From Alphaproteobacteria bacterium (GTDB lineage Bacteria > Pseudomonadota > Alphaproteobacteria > UBA9219 > RFNS01): a DNA stretch of 64,000 nt. This document shows, piece after piece, positions 34,309 to 42,598 of this stretch (the stretch's first letter is position 1; each line of letters opens with the position of its first letter). The notes under the pieces were generated by a model. The model had not been told where the DNA came from. It saw only the letters and a list, made by a program, of their open reading frames with translations, and searched no databases. The position numbers and the translations under genes were made by a program. The stretch covers positions 62,001 to 126,000 of the forward strand of contig WGMR01000009.1 of NCBI GenBank assembly GCA_016124955.1, given 5' to 3'.

Positions 34309-35055
34309 ATGTCCATCATCCCGCCCGGCCTGAGCCGTAACCTGCAATTCTATCTTTCCGGGCCGTTGCCTTGCCCCTATCTGCCCGAACAGGTCGAACG
34401 CAAGCTGTTCACCCGCCTTTCGGGCGACGGCGCGCGCGATGCGCAAACCAATTCCGGCCTGACCCGCGCCGGGTTCCGCCGCAGCCACGATATTGTGTAC
34501 CGCCCCGCTTGCCCGCAATGCAGCGCCTGCGTGCCCGTGCGCATCCCCGTCCGCCAGTTTGCGCCATCGCAAAGCCTGCGCCGCACGCAGCGCCGTAACG
34601 CGGATCTGACGCTCGAGATAACGGGAACAGACGTCACGCAGGAACAGTTCGCGCTTTTCACCGCCTATCAGCAATCGCGCCACGCCGACAGCGACATGGC
34701 GCGCATGAGCTTTGCCGATTTCAACGCGATGGTGCGCGAAGGGCAGACGGGCACGAAAATATTCCAGCTGCGTACGCCCGGCGGCGCGCTGGCGGGCGCC
34801 GTGCTGGCCGATACGATCGGCGACGGCTATTCCGCGATCTACAGCTTCTTCGACCCGGCCGAAGCGAAACGCAGCCTTGGCGTGATGCTGATCATGATGC
34901 TGGTGCACGAAGCGGAGTATGCGAACCTGCCTTATGTTTATCTCGGTTACTGGATCGCGCGTTCGCGCAAAATGGCCTACAAGGCACGTTTCCGTCCGTT
35001 GCAGGCGCTCGGGCCGCACGGGTGGGACTGGCTGCCTGAAACCCATGAACAATAA
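34309..35055 (+). CDS. bpt: aspartate/glutamate leucyltransferase (arginyltransferase family)
   Basis: A 248-residue aminoacyl-tRNA protein transferase that adds Leu to N-terminal Asp/Glu, marking proteins for degradation by the N-end rule. Signatures are FYLSGPLPCPYLP, the Cys cluster CPQCSACVPVRIP, and VYLGYWIARSRKMAYKARFRPLQ. Overlaps the next gene by 11 bases. Confidence 0.95.
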   Translation: MSIIPPGLSRNLQFYLSGPLPCPYLPEQVERKLFTRLSGDGARDAQTNSGLTRAGFRRSHDIVYRPACPQCSACVPVRIPVRQFAPSQSLRRTQRRNADLTLEITGTDVTQEQFALFTAYQQSRHADSDMARMSFADFNAMVREGQTGTKIFQLRTPGGALAGAVLADTIGDGYSAIYSFFDPAEAKRSLGVMLIMMLVHEAEYANLPYVYLGYWIARSRKMAYKARFRPLQALGPHGWDWLPETHEQ

Positions 35056-36313
35056 ACGCGGCGCGTATGATGTTGCAATCATCGGCGGCGGCCCGGCCGG
35101 GCTCAGCCTTGCGGCTGCGCTTGGTGCCGCCGGCGCCACCCTTTGCCTGATCGACCGCGACCCGCCGGAAAAATACCTGCATGCGAAGGCGGATGGCCGC
35201 ACCACCGCGATCGCTTCCGCCGCGCAAAATGTTCTGGAAGACGCGGGCGTGTGGGCGCATGTGCGCGCCGCCTGCCCCATCGAGGATATTCGCGTGGCCG
35301 ATAATCATGGGCCGAACACGCTGACCTTCCGCGCGCGGGATGTAGCGGATGCAAGCCGCGGGCGGCCGTTCGGCTGGATTATCGAGAACCACGATTTCCG
35401 CGCCGCGCTTTTGCAGCGCCTGCGCGGGATGCCGCATGTCACAATGCTGGCGCCCGCCGATGTTCTGGGTATGGAAGCGGGGGCGCATGCTGCCGTTTTG
35501 CAGCTTGCTGGCGGAAAAACGATTGCGGCCCGGCTTGCGGTCGCGGCCGACGGGCGCGCATCCCCAAGCCGCCGCCGCGCGGGTATTGCGGCGCGGGAAT
35601 GGGAATACTGGCAAGCCGCCGTGGTTTGCACGCTTGCGCATGAACGGCCGCACGGCAATGTGGCGGTCGAACATTTTATGCCCGGCGGGCCGCTTGCGAT
35701 CTTGCCGATGACGGATTTGCCCGCAAAACAGGCTGTGCACGCCAGCGCGGGCAAGGCGCTGCGCCATCGCAGCTCCATCGTGTGGACCGAGCGGCGCGAA
35801 ACCGCGAAGGTGCTGATGGATATGCCGGCCGCCGGCTTCCTCGCGCATCTTGGGGCGCATACAAGCGGCATGCTTGGCGCGATCGCGCTGGCGGGGCCGC
35901 GTTTCTGTTACCCGCTCGGGCTTATGCATGCAAAGCGCTATACCGCGCCGCGCATGGCGCTGGCGGGGGAAGCGGCGCATGCCATTCACCCCATCGCCGG
36001 GCAGGGCTTCAACCTTTCGATGCGCGATATCGCCAGCCTTGCCGCGCTTGTGGGGGAAGCGATCGTGCTCGGGCTCGATCCCGGAAGCCCGGAATTGCTG
36101 CGCCGCTACGAACGCGCGCGCCGGGCCGATAATACGGCGATGACGGTGACGACGGACGCGCTCGACCGCCTGTTTTCGAACAGCCTGCCGGGGCTCGGGT
36201 TGTTGCGCGCCGCCGGGCTTGGTGCGGTCGAACGCATGCCACGCGCCAAACATTTTTTCATGCGGCAGGCGATGGGGCTGCATACAAAAAAACCGGCAAA
36301 GAAGCGCGCATAA
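35045..36313 (+). CDS. UbiH/UbiF-family FAD monooxygenase
   Basis: A 422-residue flavoprotein hydroxylase, likely for ubiquinone ring hydroxylation. FAD motifs are IIGGGPAGLSLAAAL, the AADGRASPSRR motif, and LAGEAAHAIHPIAGQGFNLSMRD, where the common GD is GE. ATG 35045 overlaps the bpt stop. Which ring position it modifies cannot be told from sequence. Confidence 0.88.
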   Translation: MNNKRGAYDVAIIGGGPAGLSLAAALGAAGATLCLIDRDPPEKYLHAKADGRTTAIASAAQNVLEDAGVWAHVRAACPIEDIRVADNHGPNTLTFRARDVADASRGRPFGWIIENHDFRAALLQRLRGMPHVTMLAPADVLGMEAGAHAAVLQLAGGKTIAARLAVAADGRASPSRRRAGIAAREWEYWQAAVVCTLAHERPHGNVAVEHFMPGGPLAILPMTDLPAKQAVHASAGKALRHRSSIVWTERRETAKVLMDMPAAGFLAHLGAHTSGMLGAIALAGPRFCYPLGLMHAKRYTAPRMALAGEAAHAIHPIAGQGFNLSMRDIASLAALVGEAIVLGLDPGSPELLRRYERARRADNTAMTVTTDALDRLFSNSLPGLGLLRAAGLGAVERMPRAKHFFMRQAMGLHTKKPAKKRA

Positions 36314-36350
36314 AAAAAGCGCCCCGGCCCGTTGCAGCGGGCGGAGGCGC
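36312..36350 (-). terminator. intrinsic terminator, minus strand
   Basis: A long imperfect GC stem (36319-36331 with 36338-36350, two bulges) with a run of seven A on its left side, giving T residues in a minus-strand transcript. It ends the small-gene transcript from 36380-36748 and separates it from the convergent UbiH-like gene. Confidence 0.75.
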
Positions 36351-36379
36351 AGGGGAAACCTTTTGCCGCGTATGCTGGC

Positions 36380-36748
36380 TTACTGGATCACCGGGCCATC
36401 GACGAGATAGCGCACCGCTTCTTCATAGCGCGCCGCGGGCAGCGCGGAAACATCGGCCACGCCGAAAACATGCGCAAACGTGCGGCGCAGCGCCGCGCCG
36501 TCTTTTTTGCGCGTGGCGGCGGCCCAGTTGAGCAAGGCTTCAAGGCTGAGAAGTTCGTGTTCGTTCACGGCATGGCTGCGGATATCGAAGGCGATGCCGC
36601 GCACAAGCGCGCCGCGCGCCGGAATTTCGATGCCGGTTATGCCCAGCTCTTCCGCGATGCGGGAGCAGCCCCAGCCGGTATATGGCGCGTCGTTTTCGCC
36701 GCCCTGCGTGCGGGCCGTTTGCATCATGTGTGAAAAGCGGAAATCCAT
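36380..36748 (-). CDS. hypothetical protein
   Basis: A 122-residue soluble protein of unknown family. It contains YTGWGCSRIAEELGITGIEIPARGALVRGIAFD and a helical C terminus. No membrane segment, signal or recognised motif. It is followed by a good terminator, supporting that it is expressed. It precedes the accessory island and may belong with the small proteins upstream of it (36768-36959 and 37005-37193). Confidence 0.6.
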   Translation of the reverse strand: MDFRFSHMMQTARTQGGENDAPYTGWGCSRIAEELGITGIEIPARGALVRGIAFDIRSHAVNEHELLSLEALLNWAAATRKKDGAALRRTFAHVFGVADVSALPAARYEEAVRYLVDGPVIQ

Positions 36749-36767
36749 GCCCGTTTCCTTGTTTCGT

Positions 36768-36959
36768 TTACGCCGTTTGCGTCCGTGCTGCCTTGCCGAC
36801 AGACTGGTTCAACCGATCGAGCGCCTGCTGCAGCCGCTCGTCCTCGCCCATCGTGGCGTCCATGCCGCTTTGCAGCCGCGCCAGCTTTTCAATAATCAGA
36901 AGCATGTCATAAGCGCCATCGGCGCCATAGCGTTGCACAAGGTCGGTGTAGTGCATCAT
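36768..36959 (-). CDS. small protein family copy A
   Basis: A 63-residue protein, MMHYTDLVQRYGADGAYDMLLIIEKLARLQ..., with a GGGAG ribosome site. The first 30 residues align with the copies at 37005-37193 and 39394-39594 (pattern Y-DL---FGA--AYD-ML-IEK-A-LQ). The remainder is a charged helix (ERLQQALDRLN). Wholly helical and soluble; function unknown. An ATG three bases in is an alternative start. Confidence 0.62.
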   Translation of the reverse strand: MMHYTDLVQRYGADGAYDMLLIIEKLARLQSGMDATMGEDERLQQALDRLNQSVGKAARTQTA

Positions 36960-37004
36960 TGGCTCCCGGGCTGTTCCGTTCGCTTGCGTTCACAAAAAGG
37001 TTGA

Positions 37005-37193
37005 TCAGGCCGCGAGCAGGGCGGCGGCGGAAGAGGCCATCGCATCCTGCGCGCGCACGGCGTTCGCGAGGCGCGTTTCGGGGTCGATTGCGCTCATGGC
37101 CCATGACTGGATGCGCGCCACCTTTTCGATTTCCATCAGGAAATGAAAAGCCGCCGCCGAACCGAACTTCATCTCAAGATCATGAAAGCTCAT
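37005..37193 (-). CDS. small protein family copy B
   Basis: A 62-residue protein starting MSFHDLEMKFGSAAAFHFLMEIEKVARIQ. ATG 37193 is chosen because from here it aligns with copies A and C; the frame continues upstream to 37328 but that part is not conserved. It ends in an Ala-rich helix. Same tandem orientation as copy A. Confidence 0.6.
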   Translation of the reverse strand: MSFHDLEMKFGSAAAFHFLMEIEKVARIQSWAMSAIDPETRLANAVRAQDAMASSAAALLAA

Positions 37194-37507
37194 ATCACAT
37201 GCCCCGTTATGCCGGACCGTTTCCAAAACAAAAGCGCCACACTGATTGGCATTTGTTTGCCAGGGTGGGGCGCGATGAAAGGAACATACCGATTCGATGG
37301 GGTGAAAGCAATAGAAAACCTGATTCAAACGTAATAAAATTCATTATAGTACGCTTTTATAAGCATGTATTATCAATAATACATATGTATATGCCAAATA
37401 AAGGTATTTACATTTTGATCTTGGGGATTTAATAATCCTTGTTATAAGGATCGAAATTCCCACTGGTTAGGCAAAACACCCGCCCGCATGGCAATCAAGG
37501 TAAATGA
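37194..37507 (+). promoter_or_regulatory. AT-rich regulatory region before the XRE-GNAT-PanD operon
   Basis: About 310 bases without a gene, very AT-rich from 37325. It holds two inverted repeats: a perfect 12-base palindrome ATACATATGTAT at 37379-37390, and ATCCTT-N5-AAGGAT at 37435-37451, about 57 bases before the regulator ATG. Either could be the operator for the encoded XRE protein. A different palindrome, CCTATAGG (39734-39741), precedes the second XRE gene. No tRNA or obvious riboswitch seen. Confidence 0.45.
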
Positions 37508-38167
37508 ATGATTAATGGACGACAAATCCGTGCCGCCCGTGCGCTGCTCGATTGGGATGCCGAAGACCTGGCCGCCAAGACCGGCCTTTCGCGCGATACC
37601 ATTTTCAATATCGAAAAAGGGGCGGTGCAGGCGCGCGGTGCCACGATTGAGAAGATCGTCAGTGCTTTCTCGCTTTGCGGCATAGAATTTACAGATTATC
37701 AGGGTGTAAGGCTTAAGCCGACAGGCGTGACCATTTTTGATGGACCGGAAAAATTCGATGAGTTCTATAGCTTTTTATTTGAACACCTCAATAAGTATGG
37801 TGGCGAAGTCTGTTTAAGTGTTGTCGATGAAAATCTGCTTAGCAAATACCGCAAGGATCCCAGCTTGCACTATAGGCGCATGAAAGAGCTTTGCGATTCT
37901 GGAACAGTAGAGTCGTTTCGTATCCTTGCGAACAAGAGTAAGTTTACTCCGACATTTTCTACCTATAAATGGCAACCAGGTCCGGCGCTTTCGCCCACAG
38001 CGTTCTATGCTTTTGGTGATTGTCTTGCACTTATTTCGTTTGTTCATAATCCGCCGCCCTATGTGGTTGTCCTTCAATCTGCGCCGCTGGCCGAGGCTTA
38101 TAGGCAGGCGTTCAATATTGCCTGGGATGTTGCCATGGCACCTCCTGCATCTGTGGGTCAGTTATGA
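37508..38167 (+). CDS. XRE-family regulator with C-terminal sensor-like domain
   Basis: A 219-residue protein. Residues about 3-62 form an XRE helix-turn-helix (IRAARALLDWDAEDLAAKTGLSRDTIFNIEKG). Residues about 75-210 form a second domain shared with the regulator at 39811-40500: FLFEHLNKYGGEVCLSVVDE, RKDPSLHYRRMKEL, YKWQP, PTAFYAFGDCLALI, PPYVVVLQSAPLAEAYRQAF. Its plan resembles the phospholipase-D-like ligand domains of some regulators without catalytic HKD motifs; this is inference. The stop overlaps the GNAT start (ATGA). Lower GC than surrounding genes. Confidence 0.8.
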   Translation: MINGRQIRAARALLDWDAEDLAAKTGLSRDTIFNIEKGAVQARGATIEKIVSAFSLCGIEFTDYQGVRLKPTGVTIFDGPEKFDEFYSFLFEHLNKYGGEVCLSVVDENLLSKYRKDPSLHYRRMKELCDSGTVESFRILANKSKFTPTFSTYKWQPGPALSPTAFYAFGDCLALISFVHNPPPYVVVLQSAPLAEAYRQAFNIAWDVAMAPPASVGQL

Positions 38168-38838
38168 GGACTCTAGCATTAAGCACAGAAATATGTGTGC
38201 AAGAAGAAAACCTTGATGTAAGGCCCCTATCGGCAGATGACAGCGATTCTTACCGTGTCTTGCGTAAAAGAGTTTTGGATATAGGTGAGGGTAAATATTT
38301 TAGCGCCTCATACCGCAGAGACAGCCAACTTGTAACCGAAGAGCAGTGGCGGGAATATTGCACGGAGAAACGCGAACACTGCATAATAGGCATTTTTGCA
38401 GGAGGTGATCTTGTTGGTATCATGGCGATTGTTGCACAGAAGCCGGAAGAGGGTTTGGTTGCAGAATGGGATTCCACTTGGATCGACCCCGAATATCGCG
38501 GGAAGGGCATTGCTAAGTTTGCGTACAAAGAAGTCGAAAGGTGGACTAAGTGTCACGGCTACAGATATGCAGAAGTCTTTATAAGAGATGAAAATGCCCG
38601 TTCGCTGAAAATACGAAAAAAGAACGGCGCTGTTTACTCGCGCACAAAGTACAATGAAGTATGGGCCGATGGTAGTGTGGGGGATGCTCATTTCTTCATT
38701 AAGGACTTGGCTGTAGAGACCAATCAACAAGGCGATCTTTGCAGCCGTGTTATCAGCAATCTTGAGTCGACAATTGAGTCTCTCGAAAATGACTTCCCGC
38801 AAGAAAATATAAAGACACGCGAGAAAAAAAGCGCCTGA
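38164..38838 (+). CDS. GNAT N-acetyltransferase in operon with PanD-like gene
   Basis: A 224-residue protein. Residues about 18-175 are a GNAT fold with the acetyl-CoA motif DPEYRGKGIAKFAYKEVERW and an N-R-L--RKNGAVY end. A charged helical tail of about 45 residues follows. It overlaps both neighbours (ATGA with the regulator; one base with the PanD-like gene). In enterobacteria the GNAT protein PanZ/PanM triggers PanD self-cleavage, so a maturation role is possible. Alternatively it acylates the decarboxylation product. Both are inference. Confidence 0.83.
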   Translation: MRTLALSTEICVQEENLDVRPLSADDSDSYRVLRKRVLDIGEGKYFSASYRRDSQLVTEEQWREYCTEKREHCIIGIFAGGDLVGIMAIVAQKPEEGLVAEWDSTWIDPEYRGKGIAKFAYKEVERWTKCHGYRYAEVFIRDENARSLKIRKKNGAVYSRTKYNEVWADGSVGDAHFFIKDLAVETNQQGDLCSRVISNLESTIESLENDFPQENIKTREKKSA

Positions 38839-39371
38839 TGAGTTACTCCAAGCAAAGACAGACCAGAGAGGCGACGCGCGAATTTTGCTATGGCAAGATT
38901 CACCGTTGCGTTGTTACGCAGGCTGAGCTTGATTATGTTGGCTCGATAACAGTTGATCCCGCTCTTTTACGGGCATCCCGTATTTATCCTCATACAAAAG
39001 TCGAAGTTGTTAATATTACCCGCAAGGATGCTGCACGTATTATGACCTATGTTATCGAAGGTCCTGAAAATTCTGGCGTTGTATGTTTAAATGGAGCGGC
39101 CGCACATCATTTTAGCCCTGGCGATCTTGCAATTATCATGGCGTATGAGTCTGTCCCTGTGAGCTTAATCTCACAGCGTGAACACATAACTGTTCAGGTT
39201 AACGGAGAAAATGGAATCTGCGGAGGCAATACGAATAGAATAGTAGATATTAAAAAGTATCTGACTCCATCGTTTGAAGGGTTGGGTATGCCAGAGAACA
39301 ATCGCTTTGGAGAATCATATGTTCTCAAGAAAGAAACGGCGTTGGTTCTTCAAAAGCGTGAAGCCATATAA
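38838..39371 (+). CDS. PanD-like aspartate 1-decarboxylase, extended
   Basis: A 177-residue pyruvoyl-type decarboxylase homolog; PanD is usually near 120-130 residues. The self-cleavage site is kept: Gly35-Ser36 in LDYVGSITVD would give the pyruvoyl group. Lys20, His22, Arg67, Thr70, Tyr71 and Asn85 (VCLNGAAAHH) match PanD active-site positions. Extra parts are a 14-residue N-terminal extension and about 55 C-terminal residues. PanD makes beta-alanine from aspartate for pantothenate; here the regulator-GNAT context suggests a specialised use. Confidence 0.85.
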   Translation: MSYSKQRQTREATREFCYGKIHRCVVTQAELDYVGSITVDPALLRASRIYPHTKVEVVNITRKDAARIMTYVIEGPENSGVVCLNGAAAHHFSPGDLAIIMAYESVPVSLISQREHITVQVNGENGICGGNTNRIVDIKKYLTPSFEGLGMPENNRFGESYVLKKETALVLQKREAI

Positions 39372-39393
39372 CTCATTTTTCTATTTTAATCAT

Positions 39394-39594
39394 TTAGCCC
39401 GCCTTCTTCCCCTCCATCGCCATCTTCGCTGCATCAATCTCATCGAGCCGTTCGAGCGCGCTTTGGAAGCGCCATTCCTCGGTCCTATCCTGCCGCGCGC
39501 GGTCAAGCTGAAGCCCGGCCATTTTCTCGACGCTGAGCATGATGTCATACGCCATCATCGCACCGAATTTCTTGATCAGGTCTGGGTATGTCAT
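39394..39594 (-). CDS. small protein family copy C
   Basis: A 66-residue protein, MTYPDLIKKFGAMMAYDIMLSVEKMAGLQ..., with a perfect AAGGAG ribosome site. Paralog of copies A and B. It ends in a basic tail (AMEGKKAG). It lies between the PanD-like gene and the second XRE regulator, on the opposite strand. Confidence 0.7.
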   Translation of the reverse strand: MTYPDLIKKFGAMMAYDIMLSVEKMAGLQLDRARQDRTEEWRFQSALERLDEIDAAKMAMEGKKAG

Positions 39595-39810
39595 TTGCCG
39601 TCTCCTTCAATGGTGTGTTCAGGAGGCCGCCGCAACCGGCCCGTGCCAGAACGATAAGGGCATGAAAATTCTTTCGTCAAATAAATTCTCTTTTTTCCTA
39701 GTAAAAATACTGTTCATACGTTATTTTATAATTCCTATAGGGTTTTTCCAAAAGGGCTCCGGGAAGATGTTACCGGTTTTCGTTTTCCGCCATGCGCCGA
39801 TGTGCGCGCC

Positions 39811-40500
39811 ATGAAGCCCGATCCGCACCAGATCCGCGCGGCGCGCGCATTGCTGAACTGGACGCTGACGGACCTTGCCGCCGCCGCCGGCATGACGAAA
39901 GACGGCGTGCGCAAGATCGAACAAGGCCTCGTTGTGCCACAAGCGCGCAGCCTTTCCGCTATCGCGCATGCGTTCCAGAGCCGCGGCGTCGAGTTCCTTG
40001 AAAATTCCGGTGTGCGTTTCCAGGCCAGTAATATCGAGGTGTATGAAGGCGTCGATCGTTTTGATGACTTTTCGGATTTCCTCTATGAGCACCTTAAGCA
40101 AGTTGGAGGAGATGTGTGTATAAGTGCCGTAGAAGAATGGCGTTTTGCGTTGTGCCGGAAAGACCCGGTAAAGCATTACTTGCGTATGAAAGAGTTAAAA
40201 GAGACGGGACAACTTCGATCATTTCGTGTGATAGCAACCGAAAGCGATTTTCATTCAGGATATGGTTATGCAAAATATAAGTGGCAACCGCGCCATAGTG
40301 CCATGCCGACGGCCTTTTATTCTTTCGGCAACTGCTTTGCGCTAATCGTGTTCGAGCACAAACCATCCCCCTATGTCGTGCTGCATAAATCCGGGCCATT
40401 GGCCGAAGCCTATCGCTCGGCGTTTGAGGTGGCTTGGCAAAATGCCAAGCCTCCACCGGCCCCCAATGCACCGCCAGAATCAGGCAATAAAATCCCGTAA
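39811..40500 (+). CDS. second XRE-family regulator, paralog of 37508-38167
   Basis: A 229-residue protein with the same two-domain plan: HTH (IRAARALLNWTLTDLAAAAGMTKDGVRKIEQG) and sensor-like domain (FLYEHLKQVGGDVCISAVEE, RKDPVKHYLRMKEL, YKWQP, PTAFYSFGNCFALI, SPYVVLHKSGPLAEAYRSAF). It ends in a Pro-rich tail. ATG 39811 is preferred over a GTG at 39802. No partner gene is cotranscribed with it. It may cross-regulate the upstream operon. Confidence 0.8.
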   Translation: MKPDPHQIRAARALLNWTLTDLAAAAGMTKDGVRKIEQGLVVPQARSLSAIAHAFQSRGVEFLENSGVRFQASNIEVYEGVDRFDDFSDFLYEHLKQVGGDVCISAVEEWRFALCRKDPVKHYLRMKELKETGQLRSFRVIATESDFHSGYGYAKYKWQPRHSAMPTAFYSFGNCFALIVFEHKPSPYVVLHKSGPLAEAYRSAFEVAWQNAKPPPAPNAPPESGNKIP

Positions 40501-40525
40501 AAAGGGCGGTCGTGCGCCGCGTCGG

Positions 40526-40540
40526 TTAAAAAACCCTTAA
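40526..40540 (+). promoter_or_regulatory. CtrA-type box upstream of the EAL-domain gene
   Basis: A second perfect TTAA-N7-TTAA site, 42 bases before the ATG of the EAL gene, followed by another CTTAAC. This links c-di-GMP turnover to the same regulator as motA. Consensus seen directly; binding inferred. Confidence 0.65.
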
Positions 40541-40582
40541 CTTAACATAGGATTCAGCAAGCCCGCGTTAAGGTGAACTGTT

Positions 40583-42598
40583 ATGCCTGAAACAGATCGC
40601 AGCTTTGCGCGGCTGATGCCGCTCGCCATCAAGGCGCTCGCCATTTTTCTGATGGCGGCGATTCCCTTGCTGCTGATCCTCAACCTTTATCTCGGGCGCC
40701 AGAGCGCCAACCTTTTGCCCATGCTTTCAAGCGTGCAGCCCGAGCTTGACGGGCTGTTCAACCGCCAGTTTACCTTGACGCTCGTGACCGCGCTCGCTTC
40801 CGTGCTCGCGAGCTTCCTTTTGTGGCACCAGGCCAGCCGCCGCCAGCGCAGCGAGGAACTTTCGTCCGACCAGCTGATGAAGCTGCAGCGCAACGCGCTC
40901 GTGGCCGCCAACAGCACGGTGATGGTCGCCATCACCGGCAAGGATGGCAAGGTGGAATGGATCAACGCCGCCTTCGCGCAGGCCACCGGCTATCAGATTG
41001 CCGAAGCGCGCGGCCGCGACCTTATCGGCATGCTGAACTGCCCGCGCGGCGAGCAGAAAACGGTGGCGCTGTTGCGCGAAGCGGTGGAAACCGGCAGCAA
41101 TATCAAGCACGAAGTGCTCGCATGCAACCGCGACGGCAATGAATACTGGGCCGAGATCAGTCTGCAGCCTACCTTGCGGCGCGAAGGCGAGCTTGATGGT
41201 TTCGTTGCCATGCTGCACGATATTTCCACGCGCAAGATGCAGCAACAGCAGCTCGAGCGCGTCGCCTACTACGATTCGCAAACCGGGTTTGCCAACCGCG
41301 CGCTGCTGCTGCGCCGCTTGCGCGAAGTTTTGCAATCCGGCACCAGCCGTCCTTCGCTGATCCATATCAAATTTCCGCGCGCCACCATCATGCGCAGCGC
41401 GCTTAGCCAGGATATGGGCGAGGAGCTGACGCTCGCGATCACCGCGCGGCTGCGCGAAGCCCTGACGGAAGAACAATTGCCCGTGCGTCTTTCCGGCAGC
41501 GCGTTTGCCGTGATGGCGCCGGTGAAACGCCCGGCCGAGGCGATGACGATCGCCTACACGATCCAGTCCGCGCTGGCCAAGCCCTACCGCATCGCTGACC
41601 GCGAGGTGCATCTGATCGCTTCGATCGGGGTCGCGGTGGCGGATGCGGAGGCGATGGGCGCGGAAGACGCCGATTACGGCGGCATGCTGCGCGACGCCGA
41701 GATTGCCGCGCATTCGGTGACGACAAAGAACATGGATGAAGTTGTGCTGTACGACATCACCATGCGCCAGCGGCTTGAGGAGCGCGCGCGCGTGGAAAGC
41801 GATTTGCGCCGTGCGATCTATTTCGATACCACCCAGATGCATTGCGCGTTCCAGCCGATTCTCGATCTCGAAACCCTGCAATTGCGCGGGTTCGAGACGC
41901 TGGCGCGCTGGAACCACCCGGAGCGCGGCTGGATCCCGCCCGACAAATTCATCGCCATCGCCGAAGATACCGGGCTGATCGTGCCGCTCTGGAACTATGT
42001 GTTTTCCGAATCCTGCCGCAATCTGATGAAGTGGCAGCGCATGCGCCCGGCCAATCTGCACCCGCTGTTCATCAGCGTGAACCTTTCGGCTACCCAGTTT
42101 ACATATCCGGGCCTGATCCGCGCGGCCAGCAACGTGATCGAGATGTCGCGCATCAACCCCGCCTGGATCAAGTTCGAGATCACGGAAAGCGGCCTGATGG
42201 AAAACGCCGAAGCCGCGCTGGCGCAGATGGAAAGCATCAAGGCGCTCGGCTGCACGCTGGCGATCGACGATTTCGGAACCGGCTATTCCTCGCTCAGCTA
42301 TCTGCAAAAATTGCCGGTGGACGATATCAAGATCGACCGCAGCTTCATCATGAGCATGCATAAAGCGCCCGAGAATCGCGAGCTGGTGCGGATCATCACC
42401 GAAATCGGCCGCATCCTCGGCAAAAAGGTGATCGCCGAAGGCATCGAGACCGAGCAGGATCTGATCGCGCTGCGCCATTTGAAATGCGACATGGGGCAGG
42501 GTTATTATTTCCACAAGCCGTTGTTTGCCGAGGACGCGGAAAAGCTCGTGGCCGGCACGACGGCGGGTGCGATAAAGCCCGGCGCGTTAAAGGCATAA
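40583..42598 (+). CDS. membrane PAS-GGDEF(degenerate)-EAL c-di-GMP phosphodiesterase
   Basis: A 671-residue signalling protein. Two N-terminal membrane helices (LAIKALAIFLMAAIPLLLIL; LTLVTALASVLASFLLW), then a PAS domain (about 105-220), then a GGDEF domain that has lost its motif (RLSGSAFAVMAP in its place) and is probably inactive. The EAL domain (about 410-655) keeps key residues: FETLARW, SVNLSATQF, EITESGLM, IDDFGTGYSSLSYL, IKIDRSFI, AEGIETEQD. Predicted to hydrolyse c-di-GMP and promote motility. Confidence 0.92.
   Translation: MPETDRSFARLMPLAIKALAIFLMAAIPLLLILNLYLGRQSANLLPMLSSVQPELDGLFNRQFTLTLVTALASVLASFLLWHQASRRQRSEELSSDQLMKLQRNALVAANSTVMVAITGKDGKVEWINAAFAQATGYQIAEARGRDLIGMLNCPRGEQKTVALLREAVETGSNIKHEVLACNRDGNEYWAEISLQPTLRREGELDGFVAMLHDISTRKMQQQQLERVAYYDSQTGFANRALLLRRLREVLQSGTSRPSLIHIKFPRATIMRSALSQDMGEELTLAITARLREALTEEQLPVRLSGSAFAVMAPVKRPAEAMTIAYTIQSALAKPYRIADREVHLIASIGVAVADAEAMGAEDADYGGMLRDAEIAAHSVTTKNMDEVVLYDITMRQRLEERARVESDLRRAIYFDTTQMHCAFQPILDLETLQLRGFETLARWNHPERGWIPPDKFIAIAEDTGLIVPLWNYVFSESCRNLMKWQRMRPANLHPLFISVNLSATQFTYPGLIRAASNVIEMSRINPAWIKFEITESGLMENAEAALAQMESIKALGCTLAIDDFGTGYSSLSYLQKLPVDDIKIDRSFIMSMHKAPENRELVRIITEIGRILGKKVIAEGIETEQDLIALRHLKCDMGQGYYFHKPLFAEDAEKLVAGTTAGAIKPGALKA

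What the first reader, a model, noticed from the sequence alone, without database searches (positions are those of the whole stretch)
37508..39371. XRE regulator - GNAT - PanD-like decarboxylase operon
Seen: three genes overlap by 1-4 bases. The third keeps the PanD self-cleavage Gly-Ser and active-site residues but has about 55 extra C-terminal residues. Known: in enterobacteria a GNAT protein (PanZ/PanM) activates PanD. Inference: this could be a self-contained, regulated decarboxylation system, either with a built-in maturation factor or making an N-acylated amine signal or metabolite. The AT-rich composition and flanking paralogs suggest horizontal acquisition. It does not look like the usual pantothenate locus.
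Basis: partly seen in the sequence, partly recalled or inferred. Interest (0 to 1): 0.85.

Follow-up and report, generated by a model that had tools for sequence, protein, structure and literature searches.

The report
Inserted sensor–acetyltransferase–decarboxylase gene cassette
A small inserted block of genes carries a sensor-type gene regulator, an acetyl-transferring enzyme and a second copy of the enzyme that makes beta-alanine; it belongs to a large set of 'one regulator plus one amino-acid-altering enzyme' blocks in this bacterial group and may be one version of an undescribed specialised-metabolite or signalling system.

Summary
The three coupled genes are real: XRE (37508-38167), GNAT (38164-38838) and a PanD-type aspartate decarboxylase (38838-39371) with all catalytic residues kept. 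The genome has a second, short panD 84 kb away; panB and panC lie elsewhere. The long C-terminus is not a mark of the operon: it is a trait of an alphaproteobacterial PanD clade that is the only PanD in 14 of 14 other genomes. The operon sits in a 4.3-kb AT-rich insertion; two relatives carry the empty site.

The GNAT is unlikely to be a PanZ/PanM-like maturation factor: it shows no detectable similarity to PanZ, and relatives sit behind the same kind of XRE in genomes without any PanD. The XRE is the more interesting part: an HTH joined to a PLD/TrmB-like sensor fold, present in 33/33 genomes of the order (1-35 copies), usually coupled to one gene, mostly an amino-acid- or small-molecule-modifying enzyme (GNAT, EgtD-like methyltransferase, formyltransferase, histidine-racemase-like, asparagine synthase, cyclodipeptide-synthase-like and others).

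Best reading: one of many self-regulated mini-cassettes making an amino-acid-derived metabolite or signal, here probably beta-alanine plus an acetylation step. The chemistry and the sensing are inferred.

The parts
36314..40582 (.). AT-rich inserted segment between a UbiH-like monooxygenase gene and a GGDEF/EAL gene
   Evidence: The two flanking genes are direct neighbours in G002 (114 bp apart) and G001 (61 bp apart); GC 0.505 against 0.62
36768..36959 (-). small helical-looking protein, 63 aa, family of unknown function
   Evidence: jackhmmer family found beside XREs
37005..37193 (-). small protein of the same family, divergent from the XRE (likely ATG start; ORF from TTG reaches 37328)
   Evidence: jackhmmer family
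37365..37384 (.). candidate operator palindrome ATGTATTAT-CA-ATAATACAT
   Evidence: none of 40 shuffles as good
37508..38167 (+). XRE regulator: N-terminal HTH plus C-terminal PLD/TrmB-like domain without HKD motif
   Evidence: Pfam HTH_3; AlphaFold pLDDT 94 and Foldseek matches to NucT, TrmBL2, TrmB
38164..38838 (+). GNAT acetyltransferase, 224 aa
   Evidence: Acetyltransf_1; nearest solved relatives are small-molecule N-acetyltransferases and PacT
38838..39371 (+). PanD-type pyruvoyl aspartate 1-decarboxylase, 177 aa, long-tail clade
   Evidence: Asp_decarbox 120 bits; residues; tree
39394..39594 (-). small protein of the same family, divergent from the second XRE
39802..40500 (+). second XRE of the same family, no enzyme coupled to it within 60 bp (GGDEF/EAL gene 82 bp downstream)
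   Evidence: 49% identical over 210 residues

Best explanation
An inserted, self-regulated accessory cassette, one of many in this bacterial order that couple an XRE regulator with a small-molecule sensor-type domain to an enzyme that alters an amino acid or small metabolite. Here two enzymes are coupled: PanD decarboxylates aspartate to beta-alanine, and the GNAT acetylates a small amine or amino acid, possibly beta-alanine. The XRE binds a palindrome in its own promoter and responds through its PLD/TrmB-like domain to the product or substrate, so the cassette makes and senses an amino-acid-derived metabolite or signal. Shown: gene anatomy, insertion, second panD, intact PanD active site, predicted fold of the XRE, recurrence of XRE-enzyme pairs. 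Inferred: enzyme activities, GNAT substrate, operator use, ligand, and the metabolite or signal role.
For: Translational coupling. Insertion with empty sites in two relatives and AT-rich content. Second panD and unlinked panB and panC. PanD catalytic residues kept. XRE fold resembles TrmB-type ligand-binding domains, HKD motif absent. XRE family in 33/33 genomes of the order, 1-35 copies; 76 of 111 readable XREs have a coupled gene, mostly amino-acid- or small-molecule-modifying enzymes, including one cyclodipeptide-synthase-like in the order and five outside it. Partner type follows the XRE tree: 8 changes against at least 11 in 200 shuffles. A second XRE-GNAT-PanD trio in G028 with an unrelated GNAT and an XRE from another clade. 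Candidate operator upstream of the XRE.
Against: No activity, ligand or product is shown. The GNAT works without PanD in other genomes, so its substrate need not be beta-alanine. 35 of 111 readable XREs have no coupled gene. Some partners are not amino-acid enzymes (e.g. signal peptidase II at L205; several unknown). The palindrome test is weak family-wide (13 of 72 at p<=0.05).
Confidence: 0.45

Rival explanations
1. A regulated second supply of beta-alanine for pantothenate and CoA; the GNAT is incidental or acts elsewhere.
For: PanD of this clade is the only PanD in 14 of 14 other genomes, so it is presumably a working biosynthetic enzyme; panB and panC are present; the other PanD of this genome is on a long branch.
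Against: Coupled to a GNAT and an XRE that belong to a family whose other partners are unrelated to pantothenate; a second panD with native composition exists.
Confidence: 0.2
2. A GNAT-Xre toxin-antitoxin or antibiotic-resistance module (PacTA-like), with PanD picked up behind it.
For: GNAT model matches PacT (PA3270), ArsN and tabtoxin-resistance protein best; GNAT-Xre pairs are described as a TA-like or resistance class (PMC9561280, PMC2701414); pairs sit in insertions.
Against: The XRE family pairs with many non-GNAT enzymes; its domain layout (HTH then PLD/TrmB-like) differs from PacA (sugar-binding domain then HTH); PanD is coupled by a 1-base overlap.
Confidence: 0.18
3. The GNAT is a built-in PanD maturation factor analogous to PanZ/PanM.
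For: GNAT and PanD are adjacent and coupled here, and a GNAT also precedes PanD in G028.
Against: No similarity to PanZ beyond chance (BLASTP E=13, hhalign probability about 1%) and PanZ is not in its profile hits. XRE-GNAT relatives occur in genomes with no PanD: G016, G020 and G025, the last with the closest GNAT. Long-type PanDs elsewhere have no such GNAT nearby. PanM is reported only from gammaproteobacteria and a Magnetospirillum PanD matures without it (PMC4537548).
Confidence: 0.07

Closest known systems
PanD, pyruvoyl-dependent L-aspartate 1-decarboxylase (PF02261; PanM-independent 'Class II' of PMC4537548)
   Same: Family match, cleavage site and catalytic residues; closest relatives are sole PanDs of other alphaproteobacteria
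   Different: 2-residue insert and conserved long tail (clade traits); scores just under the NCBIfam panD cut-off; second copy in this genome; in an XRE-GNAT operon
PanZ/PanM, PanD maturation factor of gammaproteobacteria
   Same: GNAT fold
   Different: No detectable sequence relation beyond the fold; 224 against 127 aa; relatives occur where there is no PanD
GNAT-Xre modules such as PacTA (PA3270/PA3269)
   Same: XRE and GNAT side by side; PacT among the best structural matches of the GNAT
   Different: Different regulator architecture; regulator family pairs with many other enzymes; PanD added
TrmB/TrmBL regulators
   Same: C-terminal PLD-like ligand-binding-type fold in a transcription regulator
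   Different: HTH is of the XRE type; about 12% identity; no known ligand
LuxI/LuxR-type synthase-receptor pairs and minimal cyclodipeptide-synthase clusters
   Same: Analogy only: sensor-regulator beside a small-molecule-making enzyme, many diverged pairs
   Different: No homology of the regulator; signal and sensing not shown

Membership tests
PanD aspartate 1-decarboxylase | Asp_decarbox domain over its full length | tested here: met
   120 bits, profile 3-114 of 115; NCBIfam panD 98.7 bits, below its cut-off of 106
PanD aspartate 1-decarboxylase | Gly-Ser self-cleavage site and catalytic residues | tested here: met
PanD aspartate 1-decarboxylase | Pyruvoyl formation and aspartate decarboxylation | not testable with these tools
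   Needs expression
PanZ/PanM maturation factor | Sequence relation to PanZ | tested here: not met
PanZ/PanM maturation factor | Present only together with PanD | tested here: not met
   XRE-GNAT relatives in genomes without PanD
PanZ/PanM maturation factor | Needed for PanD cleavage | not testable with these tools
   Needs expression
GNAT-Xre toxin-antitoxin (PacTA type) | Adjacent XRE and GNAT genes, GNAT fold of PacT type | tested here: met
GNAT-Xre toxin-antitoxin (PacTA type) | Antitoxin architecture of PacA (sugar-binding domain, then HTH) | tested here: not met
   HTH first, PLD/TrmB-like domain second
GNAT-Xre toxin-antitoxin (PacTA type) | Toxicity neutralised by the XRE | not testable with these tools
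   Needs induction assay
Pantothenate locus | panD with panB and panC, or the only panD | tested here: not met
   panB and panC on another contig, second panD present
Sensor plus synthase signalling pair (LuxI/LuxR-like logic) | Regulator with a ligand-binding-type domain beside a small-molecule enzyme | tested here: met
   (fold and neighbourhood only)
Sensor plus synthase signalling pair (LuxI/LuxR-like logic) | Product of the enzyme is sensed by the regulator | not testable with these tools
   Needs a binding or reporter assay

The most novel reading that the evidence does not exclude
The order uses a large, diversifying repertoire of XRE receptor plus amino-acid-modifying enzyme cassettes as chemical signals (acylation, methylation, formylation, racemisation, amidation, cyclodipeptide formation). 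This operon is a two-enzyme version making an N-acyl beta-alanine or similar acylated amine that its own XRE senses.
Probability: 0.25. Interest if true: 0.85.

Novelty: new variant of a known kind. Interest (0 to 1): 0.6.

Why it matters
If the cassette family is what it looks like, a little-studied group of small-genome alphaproteobacteria carries many minimal gene pairs, each a sensor-type regulator beside one amino-acid-tailoring enzyme. That would be a compact set of new small-molecule circuits that can be cloned and tested one by one, and the decarboxylase-acetyltransferase version suggests a product to look for. It also shows that a long-tailed PanD beside a GNAT is not by itself evidence for a PanZ-like activator outside the gammaproteobacteria.

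Tried and rejected
Rfam and tRNA scans of the window found nothing. PanD and GNAT were sought in viral contigs without relatives; plasmid and phage records gave only distant PanDs and two weak GNATs, so no carrier was identified. PADLOC matches covered only the generic HTH part. An alignment-based viral scan for the XRE could not be run because no stretch was conserved enough. Literature searches for PanD with XRE and GNAT, PanD in biosynthetic gene clusters, N-acetyl-beta-alanine, TrmB/PLD-type HTH regulators, and XRE with cyclodipeptide synthase found no description of such cassettes in the held library, which lacks most subscription journals. The C-terminal extension looked operon-specific at first; relatives show it is a clade trait. 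The small divergent proteins were tested as a constant partner of the XRE; they accompany most XREs of this genome but only 13 of 80 XRE hits in the first set.

Full report
Observation. The PanD-like protein keeps the Gly35-Ser36 cleavage site and the catalytic residues, invariant in an alignment of 12. It scores 98.7 bits against a cut-off of 106 for the NCBIfam panD model.

Is it the genome's panD? The genome (1.93 Mb, 11 contigs, 99% complete) has two PanD genes 84 kb apart on contig C9. The other is short (about 111 aa) and starts about 35-40 bp behind a tRNA-Leu gene. panC and panB are on contig C3, far from each other and from both panDs. Among the 33 searched genomes of the order only this one has two PanDs; 14 have one and 18 have none detected.

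The long tail. The tail (consensus TPxLxxLGxPENNR) is shared by PanDs of Telmatospirillum and other alphaproteobacterial MAGs. In all 14 of these genomes tested, this PanD is the only one. In the tree the operon PanD sits in a 100/99 clade with the sole PanDs of four genomes of its own order. So the tail and the 2-residue insert are lineage traits (the insert is limited to the order's clade), not marks of a special enzyme.

An insertion. The flanking genes, a UbiH-like monooxygenase (34919-36313) and a GGDEF/EAL protein (40583-42598), are neighbours in two same-family genomes, 114 bp apart in G002 and 61 bp apart in G001. In the window 4.27 kb lies between them, holding small proteins, XRE-GNAT-PanD, another small protein and a second XRE. 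GC drops to 0.44-0.49 in the operon against 0.62 outside. PanDs of the same clade in other genomes match their own surroundings in GC, consistent with a lower-GC donor within the order (inference).

The GNAT. Its family profile finds phosphinothricin acetyltransferases, PaiA and YncA among solved structures; its model (pLDDT 81) finds PacT, ArsN, tabtoxin-resistance protein and SpeG. It shows no similarity to E. coli PanZ. Relatives sit directly behind an XRE of the same family in G014, G016, G018, G020, G022 and G025. G016 (100% complete), G020 and G025 have no PanD detected; G025 has the closest GNAT, 56% identical, but is only 78% complete. A role as PanD-specific maturation factor is therefore unlikely. 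PanM is reported only from gammaproteobacteria, and a Magnetospirillum PanD matures without it (PMC4537548); whether that PanD belongs to the long-tail clade was not tested.

The XRE. The model (pLDDT 94) joins an HTH to a C-terminal domain matching NucT, TrmBL2 and the TrmB sugar-binding domain, at low sequence identity and moderate TM-scores. It lacks the HKD motif, so ligand sensing is more likely than catalysis (inference). A palindrome, ATGTATTAT-CA-ATAATACAT, lies 124-143 bp upstream of its start; none of 40 shuffles gave one as good.

The cassette family. XREs of this family occur in all 33 searched genomes of the order, 1 to 35 copies each, and in 14 of about 380 other genomes of the class. 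I read 86 stretches around them. Of 111 distinct XREs with readable DNA behind them, 76 have a gene of at least 150 aa starting within -130 to +60 bp. Partners by sequence class: EgtD-like Methyltransf_33 (17), GNAT (10), another XRE (7), LPG-synthase-like (6), other methyltransferases (5), an unknown family (4), formyltransferase (3), histidine-racemase-like (2), 2-hydroxyacid dehydrogenase (2), cyclodipeptide-synthase-like (1) and 19 left unclassified. The unclassified include asparagine synthase, GCS2, a D-glutamate-cyclase-like protein, an aminotransferase, an aldo-keto reductase, a phosphoribosyltransferase and the 319-aa GNAT of G028, besides probable miscalls. Outside the order five XREs are followed by relatives of the same cyclodipeptide-synthase-like protein; three of these were checked, two passing and one just under the NCBIfam cut-off, and one matching solved cyclodipeptide synthases at E 3e-15. 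Partner type follows the XRE tree: 8 changes against at least 11, mean 15.4, in 200 shuffles, as expected for cognate pairs.

A second assembly. In L003/G028 an XRE, a 319-aa GNAT unrelated by BLASTP, and a PanD 75% identical to the operon's lie in the same order with gaps of 16 and 33 bp. That XRE is in a different part of the XRE tree. The same trio thus seems to have been assembled twice around one PanD clade, which favours a functional link; but G028 has ten XREs, five in the first 16 kb of that contig, so chance is not excluded (a rough personal estimate puts it near one percent).

Reading. The best-supported explanation is an inserted, self-regulated metabolite cassette. PanD activity is a strong inference from conservation; GNAT activity on a small amine is a moderate inference from its relatives; sensing and signalling are weaker inferences from fold, coupling and the company of cyclodipeptide synthases and similar enzymes. 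Rivals are a regulated beta-alanine supply and a GNAT-Xre toxin-antitoxin or resistance module; the maturation-factor idea is least likely.

Limits. XRE loci were picked by similarity to the window's XRE, so partner counts are not a random sample. No background rate of enzyme neighbours was measured. Gene calls in GC-rich DNA are approximate. The literature library lacks most subscription journals.

Noticed in passing
window 36768-36959, 37005-37193, 39394-39594 (-); L029, L030, L031: A family of small (about 55-85 aa) proteins of unknown function is encoded divergently beside XREs; most XREs of this genome have one, but only 13 of 80 XRE hits in the first set from the order.
   Followed up: partly
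L232:2159-2884, L235, L241, L245, L246:713-1468 and L204:2624-3331: Cyclodipeptide-synthase-like genes directly behind XREs of the same family, mostly outside the order.
   Followed up: partly
L182:2691-3527, L191:1532-2452: XRE partners related to histidine racemase and diaminopimelate epimerase.
   Followed up: partly
L144 (G026:C2:500-11500): A tandem array of about nine XREs of the family within some 7 kb; this genome has 35 copies.
   Followed up: no
L138, L139, L141, L142, L152, L158: Divergent XRE-XRE pairs about 0.7-1 kb apart, one with a coupled enzyme and one without; the enzyme-free ones fall in a separate clade.
   Followed up: no
L004:4042-5655: The PanD of G030 (71% identical) follows a thioesterase-like (4HBT) gene by 9 bp instead of an XRE-GNAT pair.
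   Followed up: partly
L028:9879-10379 (G000:C9:16879-17379): The genome's short panD lies directly downstream of a tRNA-Leu(gag) gene and on a long branch; PanD is patchy in the order and of several unrelated lineages, suggesting repeated replacement.
   Followed up: partly
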